This document shows, piece by piece, positions 14,876 to 25,512 of a DNA stretch of 45,249 nucleotides. Origin of the DNA: Glaciihabitans sp. GTDB lineage: Bacteria > Actinomycetota > Actinomycetes > Actinomycetales > Microbacteriaceae. The stretch's first letter is position 1. Each line of letters starts with the position of its first letter. The notes beneath the pieces are model-generated. The model was not told where the DNA came from and ran no database searches. It was given only the letters and a program-made list of their open reading frames with translations. The stretch covers positions 1 to 45,249 of the forward strand of contig JADGOT010000318.1 of the NCBI GenBank assembly GCA_017882805.1, given 5' to 3'. The position numbers were made by a program, and so were the translations under genes.

Positions 14876-15235
14876 ATGTCAAACGTCACCGAGTCACTAG
14901 AACGCCTTATCGAGCTTGCTGGCGCGCGAAGCGCGGCTCTCGTCGACAGTAGCTCGGGAATGGTCCTGGGCCACGCCGGGTCGGATGCCGGCCTCGAAAT
15001 CGCCGCTGCCGCGAACACCGAGGTCGTTCGCGCGCAACTGAAGTCAATGGTGAATCTGCATTCCGCAGACACTATCGACGACATCCTCATTACTCTCAGC
15101 ACTCAGTACGACATTGTTCGACCGCTAGCGGCGAACCCGTCGATCTTCCTCTACCTCGCCATGGACAAGAACAAGTCGAACATGGCCTTGGCACGCTACA
15201 AAGTCGCGGAGTGCGACGCTCAACTCGAGCTGTAA
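14876..15235 (+). CDS. Roadblock/LC7-like small protein (first of a related pair)
   Basis: 119 residues. The ATG at 14876 has GAGG 9 bases upstream; an earlier start at 14840 would lie at the promoter. The fold pattern is helix (SLERLIELAGARSA), strand (AALVDSSSGMVLG), helix, strands, helix, matching the Roadblock/LC7 superfamily that partners small Ras-like GTPases, as MglB does with MglA and CvnB with CvnD. The C-terminal block NPSIFLYLAMDKNKSNMALA, followed by RYK, is shared almost word for word with the next gene, so the two are paralogues. It sits at the head of a cluster with a GTPase and a third Roadblock protein. Confidence 0.8.
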   Translation: MSNVTESLERLIELAGARSAALVDSSSGMVLGHAGSDAGLEIAAAANTEVVRAQLKSMVNLHSADTIDDILITLSTQYDIVRPLAANPSIFLYLAMDKNKSNMALARYKVAECDAQLEL

Positions 15236-15240
15236 TTCGA

Positions 15241-15258
15241 CGGGGCGGTCGTACCCCG
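15241..15258 (+). terminator. Hairpin after the first Roadblock gene
   Basis: CGGGG (15241-15245) and CCCCG (15254-15258) flank an 8-base loop and are followed by AAAAT. A second GC-rich dyad (CCCCC at 15294-15298, GGGGG at 15314-15318, then TTTCTGT) lies downstream. Either could terminate or attenuate transcription between the two Roadblock genes. Confidence 0.35.
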
Positions 15259-15382
15259 AAAATCGCTGCAACGCGGCGAAATGCCTCCCATGTCCCCCTA
15301 AAGGCCCACAAGTGGGGGTTTCTGTCGCACCCGTGGCTTGGAATCATGGAGTTCTGAGCCCGACAGATGAGGAAGTGCTCCG

Positions 15383-15985
15383 ATGAGCGTTGATTCGAGA
15401 TCTCCAATCCGTTCCCTCCGTCGTTCCCCAAAGGAGCCCGAGCGCCCGGACTACTCCGAGCCCGACTTCTCTTCATGGGCAGCGAGGCTCGACGATTACA
15501 CCCCAGCGGCGCACGCCGCTCCGGCAACCACTGCCGCCGCAACAACACCAGCGGCGGTAGTCGCACCCGTTGCGGTAGTCGCACCCGTAGTGGAAGTGGC
15601 ACCCACTGCCCAGGCCTTGGATGATCGCCCGAGCCTCGAAGAGGTTCTCGAGAAACTCCTGAGTTTCGACGGCGCTCTGTGCGTTGCAGTCGTGGACAGT
15701 GAAACCGGAATGATTCTCGGTTCGGCCGGTTCCGGCGTTGAAATCGATCTCGCAGCCGCGGGCGCATCGGTCATCCTTCGTGCGCGCCTCGCAAGCACCC
15801 GGGCGTTGGGCACCAACGAAAAGATCGACGACGTGCTTATCTCGCTGACGAGCCAGGTTCAAATCATTCACCCGCTGCCCAGTAACCCGTCGATCTTTAC
15901 CTACCTCATCGGAGACAAGGCGAAGTCGAGTCTCGCAATGGCAAGGTACAAAGCAACTGAAGCGGATCCGCTGATTCGTCTGTAG
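15383..15985 (+). CDS. Roadblock/LC7-like protein with long Ala/Val/Pro-rich N-terminal linker
   Basis: 200 residues, ATG start with GAGGAAG upstream. Residues 1-80 are disordered: a basic and acidic start, then repeated APVAVVAPVVEVAP-type Ala/Val/Pro sequence. From about residue 83 the Roadblock-like domain follows (SLEEVLEKLLSFDGALCVAV), ending in NPSIFTYLIGDKAKSSLAMA then RYK, clearly homologous to the previous gene product. The linker may act as a flexible tether or hub for partner binding. An inverted repeat followed by TTTT comes directly after the stop. Its position beside a GTPase suggests a scaffold or regulator of the GTPase cycle; this is inference. Confidence 0.8.
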   Translation: MSVDSRSPIRSLRRSPKEPERPDYSEPDFSSWAARLDDYTPAAHAAPATTAAATTPAAVVAPVAVVAPVVEVAPTAQALDDRPSLEEVLEKLLSFDGALCVAVVDSETGMILGSAGSGVEIDLAAAGASVILRARLASTRALGTNEKIDDVLISLTSQVQIIHPLPSNPSIFTYLIGDKAKSSLAMARYKATEADPLIRL

Positions 15986-16013
15986 GCCGCGAACGGCGCG
16001 AAGGCGCGGTTTT
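15986..16013 (+). terminator. Candidate intrinsic terminator after the second Roadblock gene
   Basis: CCGCG (15987-15991) pairs with CGCGG (16005-16009), followed by TTTT, immediately after the TAG stop. It may partly separate the two paralogues from the downstream winged-helix/GTPase genes. Confidence 0.45.
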
Positions 16014-16080
16014 GGGGGCAGCGGGATCTCCGCATGTCACCGAGTGTTAGACGTGCAGGATTCAATTGGGGGGAAGCGGA

Positions 16081-16737
16081 ATGGCAGTCGAAGTTAACCA
16101 GGTTGCAGGTGAGCCAGCGTCAGTGTCGATGGGCTTTCCCGTAACCGTGGGCTGGACCCACGCGGCAATGGCGGTGTACTCGGTTCTGCGGTTGAACACT
16201 CCGGTGAACCTCAAGATGCACATCGAGATGCACAGTCCACTGCTCATCGATTTTCGTCATCACGCATTTTCGTGGTCCACTCCACTCGAAATTTTCCCCG
16301 TAGACGCCGTTCATACCGGACTTGAGACCGAACCCACTAGCGATGCAGCTCCACCGTTGTTTGAGCTCCCCGGCCAAGACCTCGACGGCCTGCTCTGGGA
16401 GATGGGCATCAACTCGTTCGGTGGCGCGCCTGCTTACTGGCTGCCTCCGGACGAGCGGTACCGGCTCACCCGGTGGCCGAACCTGACCCAGCACCGGCAC
16501 ACCATGCAACAGATGCAGATGATGGCAGTGCTCGGCAATACGTTCGTCAGCACGAGCGAGCTGGCTAAACTCACCGGTGCCGATGAATCTGACGCGCAGC
16601 GCCTCATCAACGCACTCAGCTTGATGCGTATTCTTACCCGCACCTCGGCGGCTCCGGCCGCGGTGGTGGTTGCCCCGACCGCTGCGACCAAGCGCCAAAG
16701 CCTCTTTGGGCGACTGCGCAAGCGGCTGGGGCGGTGA
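16081..16737 (+). CDS. Winged-helix-like protein in the Roadblock/GTPase cluster
   Basis: 218 residues. The ATG at 16081 follows a strong GGGGGAAG site. The N-terminal 130 residues form an unfamiliar mixed domain (TVGWTHAAMAVYSVLRLNTP, LLWEMGINSFGG) that I do not recognise. Residues about 144-187 read as a winged helix-turn-helix (AVLGNTFVSTSELAKLTG, then DAQRLINALSLMRIL). The C-terminus is basic (LFGRLRKRLGR). In conservon-type operons this position is held by a DUF742 winged-helix protein; this one is longer and I cannot confirm it as DUF742. It is probably a regulator or adaptor of the GTPase encoded 3 bases downstream. It may not bind DNA. Confidence 0.75.
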   Translation: MAVEVNQVAGEPASVSMGFPVTVGWTHAAMAVYSVLRLNTPVNLKMHIEMHSPLLIDFRHHAFSWSTPLEIFPVDAVHTGLETEPTSDAAPPLFELPGQDLDGLLWEMGINSFGGAPAYWLPPDERYRLTRWPNLTQHRHTMQQMQMMAVLGNTFVSTSELAKLTGADESDAQRLINALSLMRILTRTSAAPAAVVVAPTAATKRQSLFGRLRKRLGR

Positions 16738-16740
16738 CAG

Positions 16741-17307
16741 GTGGCTGAGCACGTCATACTTTTCACCGGTCCCATGGGAGCCGGTAAGACGACAGCAATC
16801 GAGAGCCTGAGCGAGATCGAGGTCGTACGGACCGAGGCGAACAATTCCGAACGGCACATCGCCGACAAGCCGACGACGACTGTCGCGCTCGACTACGGCG
16901 AGATTCTGATCGGCGCCGAGGAGAAAGTTCGTCTCTACGGCATCCCCGGGCAGAAGCGATTTGACTTCATGTGGGCCATCCTCAAGAAGCGTGCCAAGGG
17001 CATGATCTTGCTCGTGAACAGCGATGCCCCTGACCCGATCGAAGAAATGCTCTCGTTTATCGAAGAGTTTCGTGAACTGTACGACCGCGGCGGAGTTGTC
17101 ATTGGAGTGTCCCGTGCCGACGTGGTCGCCGGACCGACCCTGGGCGACTATTCTGACGCCCTGGAGCGAACAAACCCCGACATGGTTATCCCGGTGTTCA
17201 CGGTTGACCCGCGCAATCGCGATCAGATGGAAAACGTTCTGCTCGCGCTAATTGCTAATATCGAGATGCGTGCGATGTTTGGCATGATGACGACGGAGGC
17301 AGTGTGA
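16741..17307 (+). CDS. Small Ras-like GTPase (MglA/CvnD-type)
   Basis: 188 residues, GTG start 3 bases after the winged-helix gene. The P-loop is GPMGAGKT (10-17), the switch I threonines are in KPTTTVALDYG (43-53), and the G3 region is LYGIPGQKRF (65-74), which has PGQ in place of the usual DxxGQ as in MglA and conservon GTPases. The base-recognition motif is SRAD (124-127) instead of NKxD. The length matches a single G domain. Such proteins switch between GTP and GDP states and are controlled by Roadblock partners; MglA/MglB sets polarity in Myxococcus. The stop overlaps the start of a Roadblock gene by 4 bases, strong evidence that the two products work together. Confidence 0.9.
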   Translation: MAEHVILFTGPMGAGKTTAIESLSEIEVVRTEANNSERHIADKPTTTVALDYGEILIGAEEKVRLYGIPGQKRFDFMWAILKKRAKGMILLVNSDAPDPIEEMLSFIEEFRELYDRGGVVIGVSRADVVAGPTLGDYSDALERTNPDMVIPVFTVDPRNRDQMENVLLALIANIEMRAMFGMMTTEAV

Positions 17308-17696
17308 GTCCCGGTTTGCATACGAAGCCGGCGGTGGTAAAAGCCGCATCGGCACTGCTGACCGAAATGCAGGGCGTCTCAAGTTCCCTCACCTATGCCG
17401 CGCTGCTCACCGACGACGGCTTCGATGTCGCCAGACTGCCGGGGGAGACTGACGGCGCTAGGTTCGCCGGAATGGCGAGCTCGATGCAGGCACTCGGCGA
17501 TGCCGTGACCCACGAGTTGAAGATCGGCAACAGCGAGTACATCATCATCGCGTCCGGTAAGGGCTACGTTGTTCAGCTGCGAGTTCCGGGAAAAGAGCTC
17601 GTGCTCTCTGCGCTGTGGGACAACGACGCGACAGTCGGAAACGCGCTGGCAATTAGCCGCTCGTACGCGCAGAAAATGGCCGACCTACTAAAGTAG
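17304..17696 (+). CDS. Roadblock/LC7 domain protein, probable GTPase partner
   Basis: 130 residues; the GTG overlaps the GTPase stop (GTGA), so translation is coupled. The sequence is a clear Roadblock/LC7 domain: SLTYAALLTDDGFDVARLPG (about 28-47), FAGMASSMQALGDAVTHELK, EYIIIASGKGYVVQLRV, ending in a long helix. It is closer to the classical MglB/CvnB type than the two upstream paralogues. By analogy it may act as a GTPase-activating or localising partner. It ends 8 bases before the convergent mannosyltransferase gene. Confidence 0.9.
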   Translation: MSPGLHTKPAVVKAASALLTEMQGVSSSLTYAALLTDDGFDVARLPGETDGARFAGMASSMQALGDAVTHELKIGNSEYIIIASGKGYVVQLRVPGKELVLSALWDNDATVGNALAISRSYAQKMADLLK

Positions 17697-19395: not shown

Positions 19396-20475
19396 CTACA
19401 AGGTCGGTGCGGCCCCGAGGCGAAGCGCCGTGGCGATCCCGGCGAGAATCCCTTCCATCGAGACGTTCGCTGTGACCGGGCTCGATGCGCCCGCTGATGC
19501 GGCCTGTTCGATGGCGGCCCGGATGCGATCGGCATCGCGGGACTCGAATCCCGTGGCGAGCAGGAGTGGCTTTCCGAGCGCTTGGATGTCGTGAACCACT
19601 GATGAGACGTCCGTCACGCACACGTCGGCGGCGGTGAGCGCCCAGCCGTAGTCGCCAGTGTCCACGACGTCGCCGCGATTCGCGGTCGCGAGAGCTCGCC
19701 GGAGGCGGGCATCCGCTTCCGAGCTCGCCGCACGCACCCTGCCGAGCCAGGGATGAGGTCGATAGATCAAGCGCAGATCGGGGGAACCGAGCACGGCAGC
19801 GACGATCTGCTCGCCGTGAGACTCGACGGAGCTGTAGTCCATGCTCGCGCGGTCGCCCTCCCAGGTGGGCGCGTAGAGAACGACTTTGCGGCCATCCGGT
19901 TGCCACGACAGCGGGGGCGATCCAACGAATCCGAGCCAGGGGCTACCGATAACCACGGCACTCGCGTCCGCGTCGTAGCCGCGTATGCCGCGAAGCTGAT
20001 CGATAGCAGCGGCATCCGCGACGAAGTCGAGGTCGTAAGCCTTCAGCTGCCGTGAGACCGACGATTCCTTGCCGCTCTCGCCATGGCCGATGAAGACGTG
20101 GACCGGGACAGCAAAACGCAACACTCGGAAGTTAAGAGCGTTGTGATTGGGATAGAGCACGACCCGTACCTGGTGGCTTTCAAGCACCCGTGCGAGTTCG
20201 GGAGCGCCGGATGCAAACGTGACGGCGACCGTTGTGTCACGGCGAACAGCGGCGAAGGTGGAGGGATCCGACGTGATGATCGCGGTGGGGTACTCGACGT
20301 TCAGCGCCTCGAGCACTCGATACCAGCGTCGCAGTTGGTAGAGGCTCTGCGGTGCATCGGCGAAGTAGACCGCAATGGGTGTCGTCGTCGGCGTCGTTCG
20401 CGCGATAGTGCGGGCGACGCGTCGCGCGCGCACCTTGGTCAGGATGATCGAGATCGACGTGCCTAGTGCGCTCAC
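19396..20475 (-). CDS. CDP-glycerol/ribitol phosphotransferase family protein, soluble form
   Basis: 359 residues; the GTG start overlaps the upstream stop by 4 bases. It has the Glyphos_transf layout but with altered motifs: FIGHGESGKESS (His131) in place of the WHG motif, LYAPTWEGD, LIYRPHPWLG and VTDVSSVVHD. There is a short hydrophobic N-terminus but no multi-spanning domain. It is the smallest of three adjacent paralogues in this operon. It presumably transfers polyol phosphate from a CDP-activated donor onto a wall or membrane polymer; donor and linkage are not known. Confidence 0.88.
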   Translation of the reverse strand: MSALGTSISIILTKVRARRVARTIARTTPTTTPIAVYFADAPQSLYQLRRWYRVLEALNVEYPTAIITSDPSTFAAVRRDTTVAVTFASGAPELARVLESHQVRVVLYPNHNALNFRVLRFAVPVHVFIGHGESGKESSVSRQLKAYDLDFVADAAAIDQLRGIRGYDADASAVVIGSPWLGFVGSPPLSWQPDGRKVVLYAPTWEGDRASMDYSSVESHGEQIVAAVLGSPDLRLIYRPHPWLGRVRAASSEADARLRRALATANRGDVVDTGDYGWALTAADVCVTDVSSVVHDIQALGKPLLLATGFESRDADRIRAAIEQAASAGASSPVTANVSMEGILAGIATALRLGAAPTL

Positions 20476-22136
20476 TTCACCGCCACCTCAGGAGTAGGCA
20501 GCGTGCGGACGCCTCGCGATGTACGCACGTGCTCGAGCGTGCGATCGACCTCACGCAGGAACCGGTCGAGCGGCGGGCTAGAGAGATCGCCAAGATAGCG
20601 CTCCGCAAGCTGGGCGCGAGCCTTGCTCTTTTGTGGCTCCGTCAATGCTTGCCCGACCGCCTCGCCAAGCGTGTCAACAGCGCCCGACTCAACCATGATG
20701 TACGGCCGATCGAGCGCGAGAAAGTCGACGAGATCACTCCCGACATCGGTCACCAGTACGTCCGCGGCCGCGAGCACGGCGTAGCGCTCGGTGAGGGTGC
20801 CCGCGATGACTGACGTGCCTCCGGCGTGACGAAGGCGGGTCACGAGGTGATCGCTCGCCTCGGCAAACTGGCTATTGAGGGTGCCGAGCGCCGGATGCGG
20901 CAGGTAGGTCACCGAGACATTCTCCCGCGTCAGCAGCGCTGTGAGCACGGCATCGCCGCTCGTGAGGATCGAGCTGTAGCCGTCCTCCGCGTAGTAGCCC
21001 TCCCAGGTCGGCGCGTACACGATCGACTTCTTCGGGCTGGGCTCCAGGGACCGGGCGAGTTCGAGCAGCTCTCCGACTTGCGGTCGGCCGGTAATTCGCA
21101 GCTGGTCCTCGCGCACACCGATGTTGGCGTCGAGGTATCTCTCCTTGGCGGCCTCGCCTGCGATCCAAAGCTCATCGAAGGCTCGCGATGCGGGGTTGGC
21201 GGCCTCGGCTTTGTCACTCTCACCGTGGCCGATGTAGACGTCGTACAGACCCGGGATGCGGAGCAGATTCTTGTTTGCTGAGGTGTTGCGCGGGTAAAGC
21301 GCGAGAGCGAAGGTGGGCACCTGTTCGACGAAGAACTCGATCGCCTCGGCGCCCACAAGGTGCACCAGCGGAATCCGGGACGGCGCGAGAGTGTCGAAGT
21401 GCCATGGCAGTCGATCGACCGTGAGGATCACCACGCGATGCTTCTCATTGAGGCGCTCGAGAACGCGCATCCAGTCGGTGATCGCGTAGGCGCTCGCGAT
21501 GCGCGCATTGAAATGCACGAGGATCTCAGGCGACTCCTCGCGTAGCGCAGCGGTGAGCGCCGCGAGTCGGGCCTGTTCGGATGGCATCCGCAGGTTGTGC
21601 GTCAGAGCCCTCGAGATAGGAACGAGAGTGCCGATGACCAGCCCGAGACAGATGACGCCGAGCAGCGCATATGCCCAGGGGTCCACGTCGTAAATTGCGA
21701 GAATGGGCGCCACGATCCAGACCGGGATGGCGACCAGGGTCGGCCCAGCGACGGGAATCACACGTATCGGGGTAGGGGCCGCGACGACGATATTGCGCCA
21801 GTCGGCTGTGCCGCGCCAGCGCCGGAAAACGAGTACCCGCAAGACGTGCCGTAGCAGGTGTAAGCCATGGAGCAGAGCGAGTAGGGTCGCGACCTCCCAC
21901 AGGGACACTGCGTCGGCATCCGCGTGCAGAACGACGATGGCGGTGGCGACGCTGATCAGGATAGCTGCGCCGGCCTGGTCCGCGTCACCGGACGTTCGCT
22001 CCGAAGTCTTCGACAGAACGGTCACAATCACCGTCGTTGCGTAGAGCGCAACGGCAATCATGAGCACTGACCAGTGCGTTACTGTCGCGGCGGCCGCGGC
22101 AAGCGCGGCGGCGATCAGGAGAATTCGACGGATCAT
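20472..22136 (-). CDS. Membrane-anchored CDP-glycerol/ribitol phosphotransferase paralogue
   Basis: 554 residues; the ATG overlaps the preceding stop (ATGA). Several membrane segments in the first 170 residues (ILLIAAALAAAAATVTHWSV, ILISVATAIVVLHA, PVWIVAPILAIY) precede a cytoplasmic Glyphos_transf-like domain. That domain has YIGHGESDKAEA, VYAPTWEGYY, VTYLPHPALG and VTDVGSDLVDFLAL. It shares the HGESDK variant with its two neighbours. The fused membrane part probably anchors the transferase next to its lipid-linked acceptor. Confidence 0.88.
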   Translation of the reverse strand: MIRRILLIAAALAAAAATVTHWSVLMIAVALYATTVIVTVLSKTSERTSGDADQAGAAILISVATAIVVLHADADAVSLWEVATLLALLHGLHLLRHVLRVLVFRRWRGTADWRNIVVAAPTPIRVIPVAGPTLVAIPVWIVAPILAIYDVDPWAYALLGVICLGLVIGTLVPISRALTHNLRMPSEQARLAALTAALREESPEILVHFNARIASAYAITDWMRVLERLNEKHRVVILTVDRLPWHFDTLAPSRIPLVHLVGAEAIEFFVEQVPTFALALYPRNTSANKNLLRIPGLYDVYIGHGESDKAEAANPASRAFDELWIAGEAAKERYLDANIGVREDQLRITGRPQVGELLELARSLEPSPKKSIVYAPTWEGYYAEDGYSSILTSGDAVLTALLTRENVSVTYLPHPALGTLNSQFAEASDHLVTRLRHAGGTSVIAGTLTERYAVLAAADVLVTDVGSDLVDFLALDRPYIMVESGAVDTLGEAVGQALTEPQKSKARAQLAERYLGDLSSPPLDRFLREVDRTLEHVRTSRGVRTLPTPEVAVK

Positions 22137-24070
22137 CCTGCCGCCCCGTCGACAGTGTCGGCGGTCAAGGTCGAGACGCCCATCGACCTGCCCTCCTGCA
22201 GTGGCGGAGTTGGGACGACGCGTGGCTCTGGGTACCGGCTCTTCGCGCGCTCGACCACCGCACTGACCTGGTCAACGAACGCCTTCACCGGGTCAGCCGA
22301 GATCGGCCCGAGCAGGTAGTCCGCGAGCGCAATTCGGGCTGCACGGCCTTCGGGGTCCCCCACTAGGGCGTGCGAGATTGCCTGGCTGAAGCCCTCGCCC
22401 TGTTGGCTGCTGAGGTCAGCGTCGATGACCCTACCCGCATCGCTCGAGGGAAAGGCGAGCAGAAAATCCGCGAGCTTTTCGTTGCGCGGGTTCGTCACGA
22501 GGTACGGCTTGTGCGATGCCAGGAAGTCGGTGAGGACGCTCGAGATGTCCGTGATCATGACGTCGGCACTGTTGAAGGCGGCGTAGAGCGAGACCGTACC
22601 GGTCTCGAAGACCTGGTGATCGCTTCCCGCCTCGGCCAGGAGTCGCGCGATCTCTTCCTGCGCTTCGAGCATGTCCGCACGACGGTGCCCGGACGACGGA
22701 TGGGGTTTGAACAGGATTCGTGGCTGGTTCGGCATCGCGAGCATCGCGCTCACCATTGCAACGCCCATGCTTGCCAGCGACGAGTAGTTGGACTGTTCGA
22801 GGAATCCTTCCCAGGTTGGCGCATACAGTACGGTCGGTCGGGGAAGGGTGATCTCGCTCGAGCCGTCGGCGGCAACCGTCGCGATCTCGGCCAGTTGGGG
22901 TCGCCCGACGGTCACAAACTGCTCGGGTCGGAAGCCCTCGCCGAGCGCGGTATACCGATCGACACCCGCCGGTCCAGATACCCAGATCTCGTCGAAGACC
23001 TTGCTGTAGGGGTTGTAGCTCGACACCTTGTCACTATCACCATGACCGATGAAGACCTGAAGTAGCCCGCGCAGGCGCATGATCTCAAACACCTTGTTCG
23101 CCGTCGTGGGATGTAGCACGACCTTGATGGATGAGACTGTCAGCAATTCAATGTCGCGCGCACGTCCCGCGAACAGCACCGGGATGTTCGTTGGCTCCAT
23201 GTTTGGAAGGTGCGCCGCCTCTTTCACTATGATCAGCGTGCGCGCCGTGAAGGCATTCGCGGTCTGGATCCAGACGTTGAGCGCGTATGTGCCACTCGCG
23301 GGAGCACTTACGTAGATCACGACCTCCGGAGCATAGGCGTCGAGCGCCGCACGAAGCGCGACGACGCAATCGGCGCGGGTGCCGAGGGCGAGAAGCCGTG
23401 CTCGAAGCACGATGCTCGCGACGCCGGAGGTAAATCCAAGAATCGCCGCGACGGCGCCAACGACCACGAGATCGATGCGTGCGCCGTCGGTCGCCAGGAC
23501 GAGCGGAACACCGCCGGCCAAAACCAGGGTCGGAATGAGAGCGACGATCGCCGAGATCGTGCCCGCAGGAGCGGGTACCGAGTTCCTCAGCCCCCACTGC
23601 CCGAACCCGCGCCAGGCGAGGCCCGTCACCTGGTAGCCGCGCGCGCGCCACTGATCGCCGAAGGTCGCGAGGAAGCACAGGACTGCCGCGAGGGGCAGTA
23701 CCCAGACGGTGGCACCATGGCGCAGGTTGTCGGCCGCGTTCGCGGACGCGAGAGCCAGCTGCAGAAACACCGCGAGCAGAATCAGCAGGAGGATCCGAAT
23801 CGCTCGGGAGATGCCGATGTAGCTGAGGGCGCGGTTGATGGGTGACCGCAGTACTGTCACCGCCACCTGCGAACCGATGCTGACCACGGTCCCTGAGAGA
23901 GTCAGCCAGGGATATTCGGCAAGTGCTCCGGCTGCCGCCATGGCGAGGCCGACAGCCTGGGCGCCGAGCAGGCAGAGGTCGACCAGCGAGATCCGGGTAA
24001 CGGAACTGCGGATACTCGCGCGGCGCGCTGGCGGCGCCGCTGCGTCCCGTTTCGCGCCGCGCTCAGCCAC
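22133..24070 (-). CDS. Membrane-anchored CDP-glycerol/ribitol phosphotransferase paralogue, longest form
   Basis: 645 residues from the GTG at 24070, 5 bases after the upstream stop. The frame is open further into the upstream gene, but that part would overlap it by over 200 bases. Several membrane segments occupy about residues 30-250. The C-terminal transferase domain has VFIGHGDSDKVSSYNP, VLYAPTWEGF, ILFKPHPSSGHR and ITDISSVLTDFL. PYLVTNPRNEKLADFLLAFP resembles the C-terminal part of TagF-type enzymes. It lies directly after the CDP-ribitol synthesis fusion, which suggests a ribitol phosphate substrate; this is inference. Confidence 0.87.
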   Translation of the reverse strand: MAERGAKRDAAAPPARRASIRSSVTRISLVDLCLLGAQAVGLAMAAAGALAEYPWLTLSGTVVSIGSQVAVTVLRSPINRALSYIGISRAIRILLLILLAVFLQLALASANAADNLRHGATVWVLPLAAVLCFLATFGDQWRARGYQVTGLAWRGFGQWGLRNSVPAPAGTISAIVALIPTLVLAGGVPLVLATDGARIDLVVVGAVAAILGFTSGVASIVLRARLLALGTRADCVVALRAALDAYAPEVVIYVSAPASGTYALNVWIQTANAFTARTLIIVKEAAHLPNMEPTNIPVLFAGRARDIELLTVSSIKVVLHPTTANKVFEIMRLRGLLQVFIGHGDSDKVSSYNPYSKVFDEIWVSGPAGVDRYTALGEGFRPEQFVTVGRPQLAEIATVAADGSSEITLPRPTVLYAPTWEGFLEQSNYSSLASMGVAMVSAMLAMPNQPRILFKPHPSSGHRRADMLEAQEEIARLLAEAGSDHQVFETGTVSLYAAFNSADVMITDISSVLTDFLASHKPYLVTNPRNEKLADFLLAFPSSDAGRVIDADLSSQQGEGFSQAISHALVGDPEGRAARIALADYLLGPISADPVKAFVDQVSAVVERAKSRYPEPRVVPTPPLQEGRSMGVSTLTADTVDGAAG

Positions 24071-24075
24071 GGAAA

Positions 24076-25512
24076 TCAGTCGTCGTCCTCGAGAGCTTCG
24101 GCAAGGCTGTCTACCGGGCTGCCGTCGCGTCGCACGTCGATGACGTGACCGGTGGCGCTCGAGATGAGGGTGTCGATCGAGGCGAGCGCGACGGCGCGGG
24201 CGCTCAGCAGCGTGTCGGCAGGCTCGTTGCCGAATGCCTTGGTGCGCAGGGGAGTGCGGGTGCGATCCGGGTTGATGACGTTGACCCGCACACCGTCGAC
24301 AACCCATTCGTCGGCAAGTGCCTGGGTGAAGTTGACGAGCGCGGCCTTGGTTGCGGAGTAAAGGCTGTATCCGCCGCGCCCCCGAGTGTACGAACTGGAA
24401 GTGAAGTTGAGAAGTTGTCCTGCAGTCTCGCGCAGGTACGGCAGCGACTCCTGCGCGATCAGGATTGACCCCACCAGGTTGACGTCGATGGTTTCGTAGA
24501 CGATGTCGTCTGACGCATCCTCAAGACGAGAAACGGCCAGCAGGCCCGTTGAATTGACGACATAGTCGATTCGCCCGGTGGCTTCGGCGGCCGCCTTGAG
24601 CGCATCCCGAACGTCCTGACGGTTCTGCACATGGGTCTTGGTCTCGGAGCGGCTGTACGAGAAGACGTGTGCACCAAAGTCTTTGGCAACCGCGCACACC
24701 TCGGCGCCGATTCCGTAGCCTCCGCCGAAGACGACGACGGTCTTGCCCTCGAGGCCGGCGACGCGGGTCTCTTCCGCCAGTTCTTTCGCGGTTGCGGAGC
24801 GCAGCTGGAACAGCTTGTCGGCCATCGCAATGTCGATCGGCTCGGTGACTTTCATGTTCTCGTCGGAGCCCGCGACAACGGCGATGCGGACATCGGGCGT
24901 GTAGCGCAGAACAACGGTGCAGTCATCCGTGGCGGTGAAATTCGGGTCGAGTTGCGCCTTCTCGTAGGCGGCTCGGATCGCGGACAGACGGAATCCCTGT
25001 GGAGTCTGGCCACGCCGGAGCTTCGAACGCGGAGGAACATCGATCAGGAATCCGTCGTCTGACACCTCGATGATTGTGTCTGCGGACGGAATGGCGGTGT
25101 CGACCGCGCTGTGCTCGTCGAGTGCGACGACACAGTCGTGGATTATCCGATTGTCGACGAACGGACGCACCGCGTCGTGGAACAGCACCTTGACCTCGTC
25201 ATCACCGAGGGCCTCGATGGCGAGCTGTGTTGTCTGGTTTCGGTCGCTTCCGCCCTCGAGGATGCGAGTGAGCTTTGGGTACTTTCCCGTGCTCCGGATG
25301 GCGAGGATCGGATCGAGGTGACCGGGCGTCATCATGACCAGAACTTCGTCTACATCGGAGGAATCGTTGAGGGCCTCGATGGTGTGCTCGACAACGGACT
25401 TGCCAGCGATCTTGATGAGCTGTTTGGGAAGATTGAAGCCGATTCGGGCGCCCACGCCACCGGCGAGAACGACCGCGACGGTGCGCAGATCGCTGCCTGA
25501 TGAAGAGGTCAC
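24076..25512 (-). CDS. Bifunctional IspD-type cytidylyltransferase / SDR reductase (CDP-ribitol synthesis, Bcs1/TarIJ-like)
   Basis: 478 residues, GTG start with a strong AAGGAGA site. The N-terminal half is an IspD/TarI-like cytidylyltransferase: VVLAGGVGARIGFNLPKQL (14-32), HDAVRPFVDN (112-121), and ATDDCTVV (194-201). The C-terminal half, from about 255, is a short-chain dehydrogenase: Rossmann loop FGGGYGIG (262-269), TSSS (371-374) and YSATK (Tyr385, Lys389). Fusion of these two activities is known in Haemophilus Bcs1, which reduces ribulose 5-phosphate and makes CDP-ribitol. It heads an operon of polyol-phosphate transferases, which fits well. Confidence 0.9.
   Translation of the reverse strand: MTSSSGSDLRTVAVVLAGGVGARIGFNLPKQLIKIAGKSVVEHTIEALNDSSDVDEVLVMMTPGHLDPILAIRSTGKYPKLTRILEGGSDRNQTTQLAIEALGDDEVKVLFHDAVRPFVDNRIIHDCVVALDEHSAVDTAIPSADTIIEVSDDGFLIDVPPRSKLRRGQTPQGFRLSAIRAAYEKAQLDPNFTATDDCTVVLRYTPDVRIAVVAGSDENMKVTEPIDIAMADKLFQLRSATAKELAEETRVAGLEGKTVVVFGGGYGIGAEVCAVAKDFGAHVFSYSRSETKTHVQNRQDVRDALKAAAEATGRIDYVVNSTGLLAVSRLEDASDDIVYETIDVNLVGSILIAQESLPYLRETAGQLLNFTSSSYTRGRGGYSLYSATKAALVNFTQALADEWVVDGVRVNVINPDRTRTPLRTKAFGNEPADTLLSARAVALASIDTLISSATGHVIDVRRDGSPVDSLAEALEDDD

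What the first reader, a model, noticed from the sequence alone, without database searches (positions are those of the whole stretch)
14876..17696. Kinase-less conservon-like system: three Roadblock proteins, a winged-helix protein and a Ras-like GTPase
Streptomyces conservons (CvnA-D) combine a histidine kinase, a Roadblock protein, a DUF742 winged-helix protein and a small GTPase. Here the last three functions are arranged in order, and two additional paralogous Roadblock-like proteins precede them, one with an 80-residue Ala/Val/Pro tether. No kinase is encoded nearby. The GTPase stop overlaps the third Roadblock start by 4 bases. The operon lies between two wall-polymer gene blocks. The two upstream paralogues share an NPSIF.YL..DK.KS..A.ARYK signature that I do not associate with a named family.
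Basis: partly seen in the sequence, partly recalled or inferred. Interest (0 to 1): 0.8.

Follow-up and report, generated by a model that had tools for sequence, protein, structure and literature searches.

The report
Kinase-free Ras-like switch operon
An actinobacterium carries a five-gene Ras-like molecular switch that resembles a switch system known from proteobacteria more than the kinase-based 'conservon' of actinobacteria, and it may help control type IV pili, using Roadblock-type adaptor proteins of a family that is usually annotated only as hypothetical.

Summary
The five genes at 14876-17696 are real, under purifying selection and conserved as a cluster in part of the Microbacteriaceae. 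Gene 5 is an MglB-type Roadblock. Genes 1 and 2 have the Roadblock fold by structure prediction (gene 2 by identity to gene 1) but match no Pfam or NCBIfam family. Gene 4 is an MglA-type GTPase. Gene 3 has a winged-helix region but is not DUF742.

The conservon reading is not supported: no kinase nearby, no DUF742 in the genome, different GTPase G4 motif. Gene 3 is instead homologous (hhalign E 2.6e-22) to the partner protein of Group-3-type MglA GTPases of beta/gamma-Proteobacteria. With an iterated profile it lies beside 60 of 64 proteobacterial relatives of the GTPase and 0 of 9 conservon-type GTPases. The window system is a Group-3-type module in Actinobacteria that lacks the extra N-terminal region and adds an unnamed Roadblock family found in several phyla.

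Across 299 Microbacteriaceae genomes, 26 of 27 with this GTPase carry a PilB-grade ATPase (120 of 272 without); by genus the link is weaker (p 0.023). In three genera the operon lies within 20 kb of pilus genes, but not in the window. Type IV pilus control is my leading, unproven output. Novelty: new variant of a known kind.

The parts
14876..15235 (+). R1 (R1 class, 'P1' in my scripts): 119-aa Roadblock-fold protein of an unnamed family; class consensus includes IEDILITL..QYHIIRP and F.YLVLDK.KSNLALAR
   Evidence: AF2 pLDDT 91.8, Foldseek/VIA to MglB, Ragulator and Roadblock chains; no Pfam/NCBIfam match; 43-88% identical relatives in Microbacteriaceae and Proteobacteria
15383..15985 (+). R2: paralogue of R1 with an N-terminal basic segment, a [SG]W[AG][AQ][KR]L....P motif and an Ala/Val/Pro tether (domain from about 15623)
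   Evidence: 47% identity to R1; motif aligned in the 5 R2-type proteins compared (post hoc motif; 0 of 20000 shuffles of the window tether held a stricter form of it)
16081..16737 (+). P3: middle domain + winged helix + cationic C-terminal tail SLFGRLRKRLGR (alternative start 16066)
   Evidence: hhalign to the proteobacterial partner protein, prob 99.5, E 2.6e-22, 189 columns including the tail; AF2 pLDDT 81.9, winged helix at residues 117-193
16741..17307 (+). MglA-type small GTPase; G1 GPMGAGKT, G2 TTTV, G3 GIPGQ, G4 SRAD, G5 DPR
   Evidence: Pfam ATP_bind_1 40 bits, MMR_HSR1 24.7 bits; motif table; tree
17304..17696 (+). R3: MglB-type Roadblock/LC7 protein with the conserved Asp-Gly pair (D38 G39)
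   Evidence: Robl_LC7 23.5 bits; D38/G39 invariant in 26 rows; phmmer to 7f8m 1.3e-6 and to the cvnB5 structure 3leq 4.8e-5

Best explanation
A Group-3-type MglA module, described so far almost only from beta/gamma-Proteobacteria, in a Microbacteriaceae bacterium. The GTPase is the switch. R3 is its MglB-type partner (GAP and/or GEF, inferred from MglB). P3 is the input/adaptor: its winged helix and cationic tail are the conserved core, and its N-terminus is exchangeable (receiver-like in Proteobacteria by published fold prediction, DUF2510 in other Microbacteriaceae, absent in the window). R1 and R2 are a second, paralogous Roadblock class that I infer forms an R1/R2 dimer which docks or scaffolds the GTPase, R2 being tethered through its conserved N-terminal motif. 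The output is most likely the activity or placement of type IV pili. Shown: gene identities, fold of R1, homology of P3, linkage, co-occurrence with PilB. Inferred: biochemical roles, R1/R2 pairing, P3 as input, pilus output.
For: P3 homology, E 2.6e-22. With an iterated profile a P3 lies within 3.5 kb on the same strand as the GTPase in 16 of 16 Microbacteriaceae and 60 of 64 proteobacterial loci, 0 of 9 conservon-type and 0 of 3 Deinococcota loci. Nearest R1-class domain 803-1252 bp from the GTPase (start to start) in 19 of 19 genomes that hold both. GTPase tree 98/77 with the 16 P1-linked proteobacterial rows. Published Group 3 description: unknown protein with winged helix, MglA, one or two MglB (PMC4316618 sections 13-15 and 18). 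Pilus link: PilB-grade PF00437 (E<=1e-100) in 26 of 27 GTPase genomes against 120 of 272 others, Fisher 3.6e-8 with genomes taken as independent. GTPase operon divergent from a T2SSE/pilin cluster in L137 (G218), and 3.7 kb from a prepilin peptidase-PilM_2 cluster with T2SSF and two T2SSE genes in L138 (G296). In Snodgrassella, which has a Group 3 mgl locus, an orphan mglB allele promoted colonisation, potentially by altering type IV pilus-dependent motility (PMC11112851, abstract and passages).
Against: The window's own operon is not near pilus genes: its PilB-grade and second T2SSE matches are on contig C24. At genus level the PilB association is weaker (10 of 11 GTPase genera against 41 of 74 others, p 0.023), and three PilB-bearing genomes of the window's own genus lack the GTPase. 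The three closest adjacencies are one genus and so perhaps one event. G3 is GIPGQ, not GTPGQ; the receiver-like N-terminus is missing; an MglB-type R3 lies within 3 kb of the GTPase in only 30 of 64 proteobacterial loci. Conservon kinship is not formally rejected (AU p 0.089), and the tree tool warned of long branches meeting where conservon and Deinococcota rows join. No biochemical data.
Confidence: 0.55

Rival explanations
1. A conservon (Group 2) that lost its histidine kinase and gained extra Roadblock genes.
For: Same apparent order Roadblock - winged helix - GTPase; actinobacterial host; R3 matches the S. avermitilis cvnB5 structure 3leq at 4.8e-5; an AU test does not reject window-clade + conservon (p 0.089).
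Against: No DUF742 found in the genome and P3 not DUF742; G4 motif SRAD instead of NxFD; identity to conservon-type GTPases about 30-35% against 37-52% in the best segment for the proteobacterial ones among the best 80 of 489 relatives; P3 homologue beside 0 of 9 conservon-type GTPases. In the family sample the one strong DUF742 hit (G079) has its own GTPase only 34% identical to the window's.
Confidence: 0.07
2. A signal-to-transcription system: the GTPase acts on P3, whose winged helix binds DNA and regulates genes, as proposed for Group 3 by Wuichet and Sogaard-Andersen.
For: Winged-helix match at residues 117-193; published proposal (PMC4316618 section 18).
Against: No DNA-binding family passes its Pfam cut-off for the window's P3. 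The best structural matches of the winged helix are SEA/GATOR1 chains (VIA Z 6.6-7.9), but these are not clearly above generic winged helices. The conserved cationic C-terminal tail would fit membrane or protein docking as well.
Confidence: 0.25
3. Control of envelope or wall-polymer assembly, as the flanking genes suggest.
For: Three Glyphos_transf genes, a PMT_2 protein and ABC systems flank the operon in the window.
Against: Such flanks did not appear in the three relatives whose neighbours I listed: L003 (ORF listing only), L137 and L138, the last two beside pilus genes. No wider survey of flanks was made.
Confidence: 0.1

Closest known systems
Group 3 MglA systems of beta/gamma-Proteobacteria (Wuichet and Sogaard-Andersen 2014, PMC4316618)
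   Same: Winged-helix partner protein with cationic C-terminal tail, MglA-type GTPase with lysine-less G4 and an arginine-bearing G5, MglB-type Roadblock, no kinase in the published description; R1-class gene linked in 17 of 64 proteobacterial loci
   Different: Host phylum; no extra N-terminal region on P3; GIPGQ in G3 and DPR in G5; two R1-class paralogues, one tethered
Actinobacterial conservon (CvnA-D, Group 2)
   Same: Roadblock, winged-helix-type protein and small GTPase in one operon in an actinobacterium
   Different: No histidine kinase, no DUF742, different G4 motif, additional Roadblock class, P3 not found beside the 9 conservon-type GTPases
MglA/MglB/MglC polarity module of Myxococcus xanthus
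   Same: Ras-like GTPase with several Roadblock proteins; R1 model superposes on MglB (Z 17.1) and MglC (Z 12.8)
   Different: GTPase lacks the Group 1 arginine next to the G2 threonine; RomR and Frz partners were not searched for; a polarity role is not shown
Ragulator/LAMTOR and GATOR1 (eukaryotic Roadblock scaffolds and GTPase regulators)
   Same: R1 model matches Ragulator chain B (Z about 17; LAMTOR2/p14 by recall); P3 winged helix matches SEA/GATOR1 chains weakly (Z 7-8)
   Different: No sequence homology shown; resemblance of fold only

Membership tests
Conservon (Group 2 MglA) | Histidine kinase gene in the operon | tested here: not met
   No HATPase_c on the window's contig (24 hits elsewhere) nor within about 45 kb of the operon in 4 relatives
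Conservon (Group 2 MglA) | DUF742 (CvnC) protein | tested here: not met
   P3 has no DUF742 match at E<=1; 0 matches in the 84%-complete genome
Conservon (Group 2 MglA) | G4 motif NxFD in the GTPase | tested here: not met
   Window reads SRAD
Conservon (Group 2 MglA) | GTPase falls in the conservon clade | tested here: inconclusive
   Conservon-type rows form their own 100/100 clade without it, but AU p 0.089 for the union
Group 3 MglA system | Partner protein with conserved C-terminal winged-helix region next to mglA | tested here: met
   hhalign E 2.6e-22; beside 16 of 16 Microbacteriaceae and 60 of 64 proteobacterial GTPases with the iterated profile
Group 3 MglA system | Receiver-like N-terminal domain on that partner | tested here: not met
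   The 218-aa P3 of the window aligns only with the part of the proteobacterial protein after about residue 130; the authors describe the architecture from their alignment and do not call it universal
Group 3 MglA system | GTPGQ in G3, no lysine in G4, DAR in G5 | tested here: inconclusive
   G4 without lysine met; G3 is GIPGQ and G5 DPR in the window
Group 3 MglA system | One or two coupled MglB proteins | tested here: met
   R3 is MglB-type with the Asp-Gly pair; R1/R2 come in addition
Group 3 MglA system | GTPase groups with beta/gamma-proteobacterial members | tested here: inconclusive
   One side of a branch with 16 P1-linked proteobacterial rows, support 98/77, not starred; that these rows are the authors' Group 3 rests on taxonomy, neighbours and motifs, their own list was not at hand
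Roadblock/LC7 superfamily (R1, R2) | Roadblock fold (helix-2 strands-helix-3 strands-helix) | tested here: met
   AF2 model of R1 and structural matches; R2 only by 47% identity to R1
Roadblock/LC7 superfamily (R1, R2) | Match to Robl_LC7 profile | tested here: not met
   0 families for R1 and R2; 3 of 31 class members match Robl_LC7 weakly, best E 0.039
MglA/MglB-type control of type IV pili | Mutants change piliation or twitching | not testable with these tools
   Only co-occurrence and adjacency were tested

The most novel reading that the evidence does not exclude
R1/R2 belong to an unrecognised Roadblock family present in at least four phyla (Actinomycetota, Pseudomonadota, Deinococcota, and by the hit tally Bacteroidota through Hymenobacter, whose hits I did not inspect). 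With P3 it makes a Ragulator/GATOR-like scaffold in which exchangeable sensor domains on P3 (receiver-like, DUF2510, perhaps a blue-light BLUF domain in Agarilytica) gate a Ras-like GTPase directly, without a kinase, to switch type IV pili.
Probability: 0.25. Interest if true: 0.75.

Novelty: new variant of a known kind. Interest (0 to 1): 0.5.

Why it matters
Group 3 MglA systems are described as nearly confined to beta/gamma-Proteobacteria (PMC4316618), and I met no biochemistry of them in the papers seen. Cultured Microbacteriaceae carry a compact version, in some genera near a type IV pilus locus, so whether these GTPases control pili becomes directly testable in monoderm bacteria. The R1/R2 class would add a Roadblock family that annotation usually leaves as 'hypothetical protein', and the exchangeable N-terminus of P3 suggests how signals could enter a bacterial Ras-like switch without a kinase.

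Tried and rejected
Conservon membership: rejected on kinase, DUF742 and G4 motif, with one inconclusive tree test. Homology of P3 to DUF4388 (PATAN) proteins that sit beside GTPases in Thermus or beside R1-class genes in Streptomyces: hhalign gives only E 0.006 and probability 6% over the HTH (for the proteobacterial P3), so not claimed. Profile-profile comparison of the R1 class with R3: no match (E 0.11); the link is by fold only. PDB search with the proteobacterial P3 profile found nothing useful for its N-terminal region, so 'receiver-like' is the authors' claim, not mine. BLUF-P3 fusion in Agarilytica: the BLUF domain is certain (E 8.1e-23), but the P3 part is weak (E 0.0037, hhalign E 0.024) and it is not counted as a P3, so only a lead. 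SEA/GATOR1 resemblance of the P3 winged helix: Z under 8 is generic by the tool's own note. Amphipathic-helix test of the tail: hydrophobic moment not unusual for its composition (12.7% of shuffles as high), so only 'cationic, conserved' is claimed. Promoter/terminator scan: none found. Wall-polymer flanks as a functional clue: not seen in the three relatives looked at. The HATPase_c list was cut off, so it was repeated on 5 genomes.

Limits: GTPase relatives are the best 80 of 489. Of the 9 'conservon-type' loci, 5 are annotated with kinase-like, Roadblock, DUF742 and GTPase genes (L082, L083, L129, L130, L131), one has a DUF742 hit (L108), and 3 without annotation (L085, L087, L128) were so called from their GTPase clade. 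In the tree I dropped 12 near-duplicate loci and then two long-branch rows. G079 (34% identity) was dropped from the 28 GTPase genomes before the PilB count. The iterated P3 profile was trained partly on the loci it then counted; with the seed profile the counts were 47 of 64, and 40 of 57 outside the seed. It also gave a weak cross-match to an HTH gene on the other strand in L083 (E 0.0004). Distances to PilB were read from the listings and cannot be measured across contigs; the adjacency p-values are crude and ignore kinship.
Full report
What is there. Five genes on the + strand at 14876-17696: R1 (119 aa), R2 (200 aa), P3 (218 aa from the ATG at 16081, or 223 from a TTG at 16066), a small GTPase (188 aa) and R3 (130 aa, start overlapping the GTPase stop by 4 bases). 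Between the window and its nearest relative (L002, a contig of the same length as the one in same-genus genome G262) all five have dN 0.06-0.13 against dS 0.72-0.94, so they are real genes under selection. The window's genome is a draft (3.0 Mb, 371 contigs, 84% complete) and the window is one whole contig.

Identity of each part. R3 is an MglB-type Roadblock protein (Robl_LC7 23.5 bits, just over the cut-off), with the Asp-Gly pair that PMC4316618 (section 15) reports for MglB of Groups 2-5 (invariant in 26 rows). R1 and R2 match nothing in Pfam or NCBIfam at E<=1. A model of R1 from a 31-row alignment (A2) has pLDDT 91.8 and the Roadblock order of elements. It matches a Streptomyces Roadblock domain (Foldseek E 8.9e-7; VIA Z 17.4, rmsd 2.2, 114 residues), MglB and a Ragulator chain. 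R2 was not modelled; it is 47% identical to R1 and adds a tether. In the 5 R2-type proteins compared, the tether begins with a basic stretch and a [SG]W[AG][AQ][KR]L....P motif while the rest of the linker diverges; the motif was defined after seeing them. The GTPase has G1 GPMGAGKT, G3 GIPGQ, G4 SRAD and G5 DPR. P3 contains a winged helix at residues 117-193, below the cut-off of every Pfam HTH model listed.

Kinship. The closest GTPases outside Microbacteriaceae are from beta/gamma-Proteobacteria (37-52% in the best segment; best 80 of 489 relatives kept). Conservon-type GTPases give about 30-35%. PMC4316618 (sections 13-15 and 18 read) describes Group 3 MglA systems as almost exclusively beta/gamma-proteobacterial and typically made of a protein of unknown function (receiver-like N-terminus, linker, winged-helix C-terminus), MglA and one or two MglB. 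P3 of the window family aligns with such a protein of Alcanivorax, Povalibacter and others over 189 columns including the last residues (hhalign E 2.6e-22). With a profile built from both sets, P3 lies within 3 kb on the same strand as the GTPase in 47 of 64 proteobacterial loci (40 of 57 outside the seed). After iteration it does so within 3.5 kb in 60 of 64, in 16 of 16 Microbacteriaceae, in 0 of 9 conservon-type and 0 of 3 Deinococcota loci. The R1 class is linked in 13 of 16 Microbacteriaceae and 17 of 64 proteobacterial loci, and an R3-type gene in 16 of 16 and 30 of 64. In the tree the 19 Microbacteriaceae GTPases and the 16 P1-linked proteobacterial ones are one side of a branch (98/77), and conservon-type rows form a separate 100/100 clade. 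An AU test of Microbacteriaceae plus conservons gives p 0.089, which is not a rejection.

Why it is not a conservon. DUF742 is not found in the genome. In 299 Microbacteriaceae genomes DUF742 passes its cut-off in 2, one of which (G079) has the only conservon-grade GTPase match. No HATPase_c lies on the window's contig, nor within about 45 kb of the operon in G036, G048, G218 and G257.

Input. The N-terminus of P3 varies: about 130 further residues in the seven proteobacterial P3 proteins aligned, a DUF2510 match in 6 of 15 Microbacteriaceae P3 proteins (by inference the six long ones), none in the window. On an Agarilytica plasmid a BLUF-domain protein sits between an R1-class gene and the GTPase; its C-terminal half resembles P3 only weakly. 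I infer that P3 carries the input, in place of the conservon kinase.

Output. Of 299 Microbacteriaceae genomes, 28 have the GTPase (27 without G079) and 24 the R1 class. Both are present in 19, the nearest pair always 803-1252 bp apart. A PilB-grade T2SSE ATPase (E<=1e-100) is in 146 of 299: 26 of the 27 GTPase genomes (the exception, G099, is 66% complete) against 120 of 272 others (Fisher 3.6e-8 with genomes as independent; by genus 10 of 11 against 41 of 74, p 0.023). None of the 5 genomes with the R1 class but no GTPase has it. In G218, G260 and G167 (one genus) the PilB-grade match is about 1.6 kb from the GTPase match, in G296 9.5 kb, in G257 about 18 kb (contigs limit this in drafts). 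In L138 (G296) the neighbours are a prepilin peptidase, PilM_2, T2SSF and two T2SSE proteins, one with MshEN; in L137 (G218) N_methyl pilin-like genes lie beyond the T2SSE genes. The window's own two main T2SSE matches are on contig C24, away from the operon. In Snodgrassella, whose mglA is Group 3, an orphan mglB allele was linked to colonisation, potentially through type IV pilus-dependent motility (PMC11112851, abstract and passages), and MglA stimulates type IV pili in Myxococcus (PMC7519303 and PMC7668184, search listings only). Pilus control is therefore my leading inference, at about 0.45; the identity as a Group-3-type module I hold at about 0.9.

Spread of the R1 class. tblastn finds it in 28 plasmid-collection records, among them 9 Streptomyces, 5 Hymenobacter and 3 Deinococcus. 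Of the 20 rows listed, 14 name a gene under the match and all 14 are 'hypothetical protein' (one also overlaps an MBL-fold gene). It is in 19 of 346 Actinomycetota genomes, the window's included. In two Streptomyces plasmids it sits with a DUF4388-like protein (below the Pfam cut-off) and a Roadblock protein, with no GTPase in the stretch by my profile, so the class is not bound to this GTPase.

Print. In the listings of seven searches I saw no paper on this system in Microbacteriaceae or on the R1 class; the library lacks most subscription journals. That longin and Roadblock domains are related and that Npr2/Npr3 carry winged helices is from PMC3521125 (passages).

Verdict. It is a new variant of a known kind with an unnamed Roadblock family, and a testable link to type IV pili.

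Noticed in passing
L118:5396-6124 (Agarilytica plasmid pSU2): BLUF blue-light domain protein encoded between an R1-class gene and a small GTPase plus Roadblock gene; C-terminal half weakly like P3, a possible light-gated GTPase module.
   Followed up: partly
L119:3233-5375 and L120:3031-5363 (Streptomyces plasmids): R1-class genes beside DUF4388-like and Roadblock genes with no GTPase found in the stretch; a second R1-like paralogue is present in each.
   Followed up: partly
L008, L011, L012, L013, L015, L017: P3 proteins with an N-terminal extension that matches DUF2510 (6 of 15), apparently in place of the proteobacterial N-terminal region; Salinibacterium amurskyense carries two copies of the system (L011, L017).
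   Followed up: partly
L148 (G228:C16:214500-225000): Two GTPase/P3/Roadblock sets close together with two R1-class genes and a third P3-like gene.
   Followed up: no
L149-L151 and L107 (genomes G211, G274, G073, G056): R1-class domains in genomes without the GTPase or a PilB-grade match, in longer open frames, some with acidic N-terminal stretches; start codons not settled.
   Followed up: no
window 15305-15324: A short CCCAC-AA-GTGGG inverted repeat followed by GGTTTCTG between R1 and R2, seen by eye; the terminator scan did not report it.
   Followed up: no
window 19399-24307: Three successive Glyphos_transf (teichoic-acid-type) genes on the - strand downstream.
   Followed up: no
L144:2995-3512 (Neisseria gonorrhoeae record): The GTPase homologue matches in two pieces, next to a P3-like C-terminal stretch and a Roadblock gene; left as found.
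   Followed up: no
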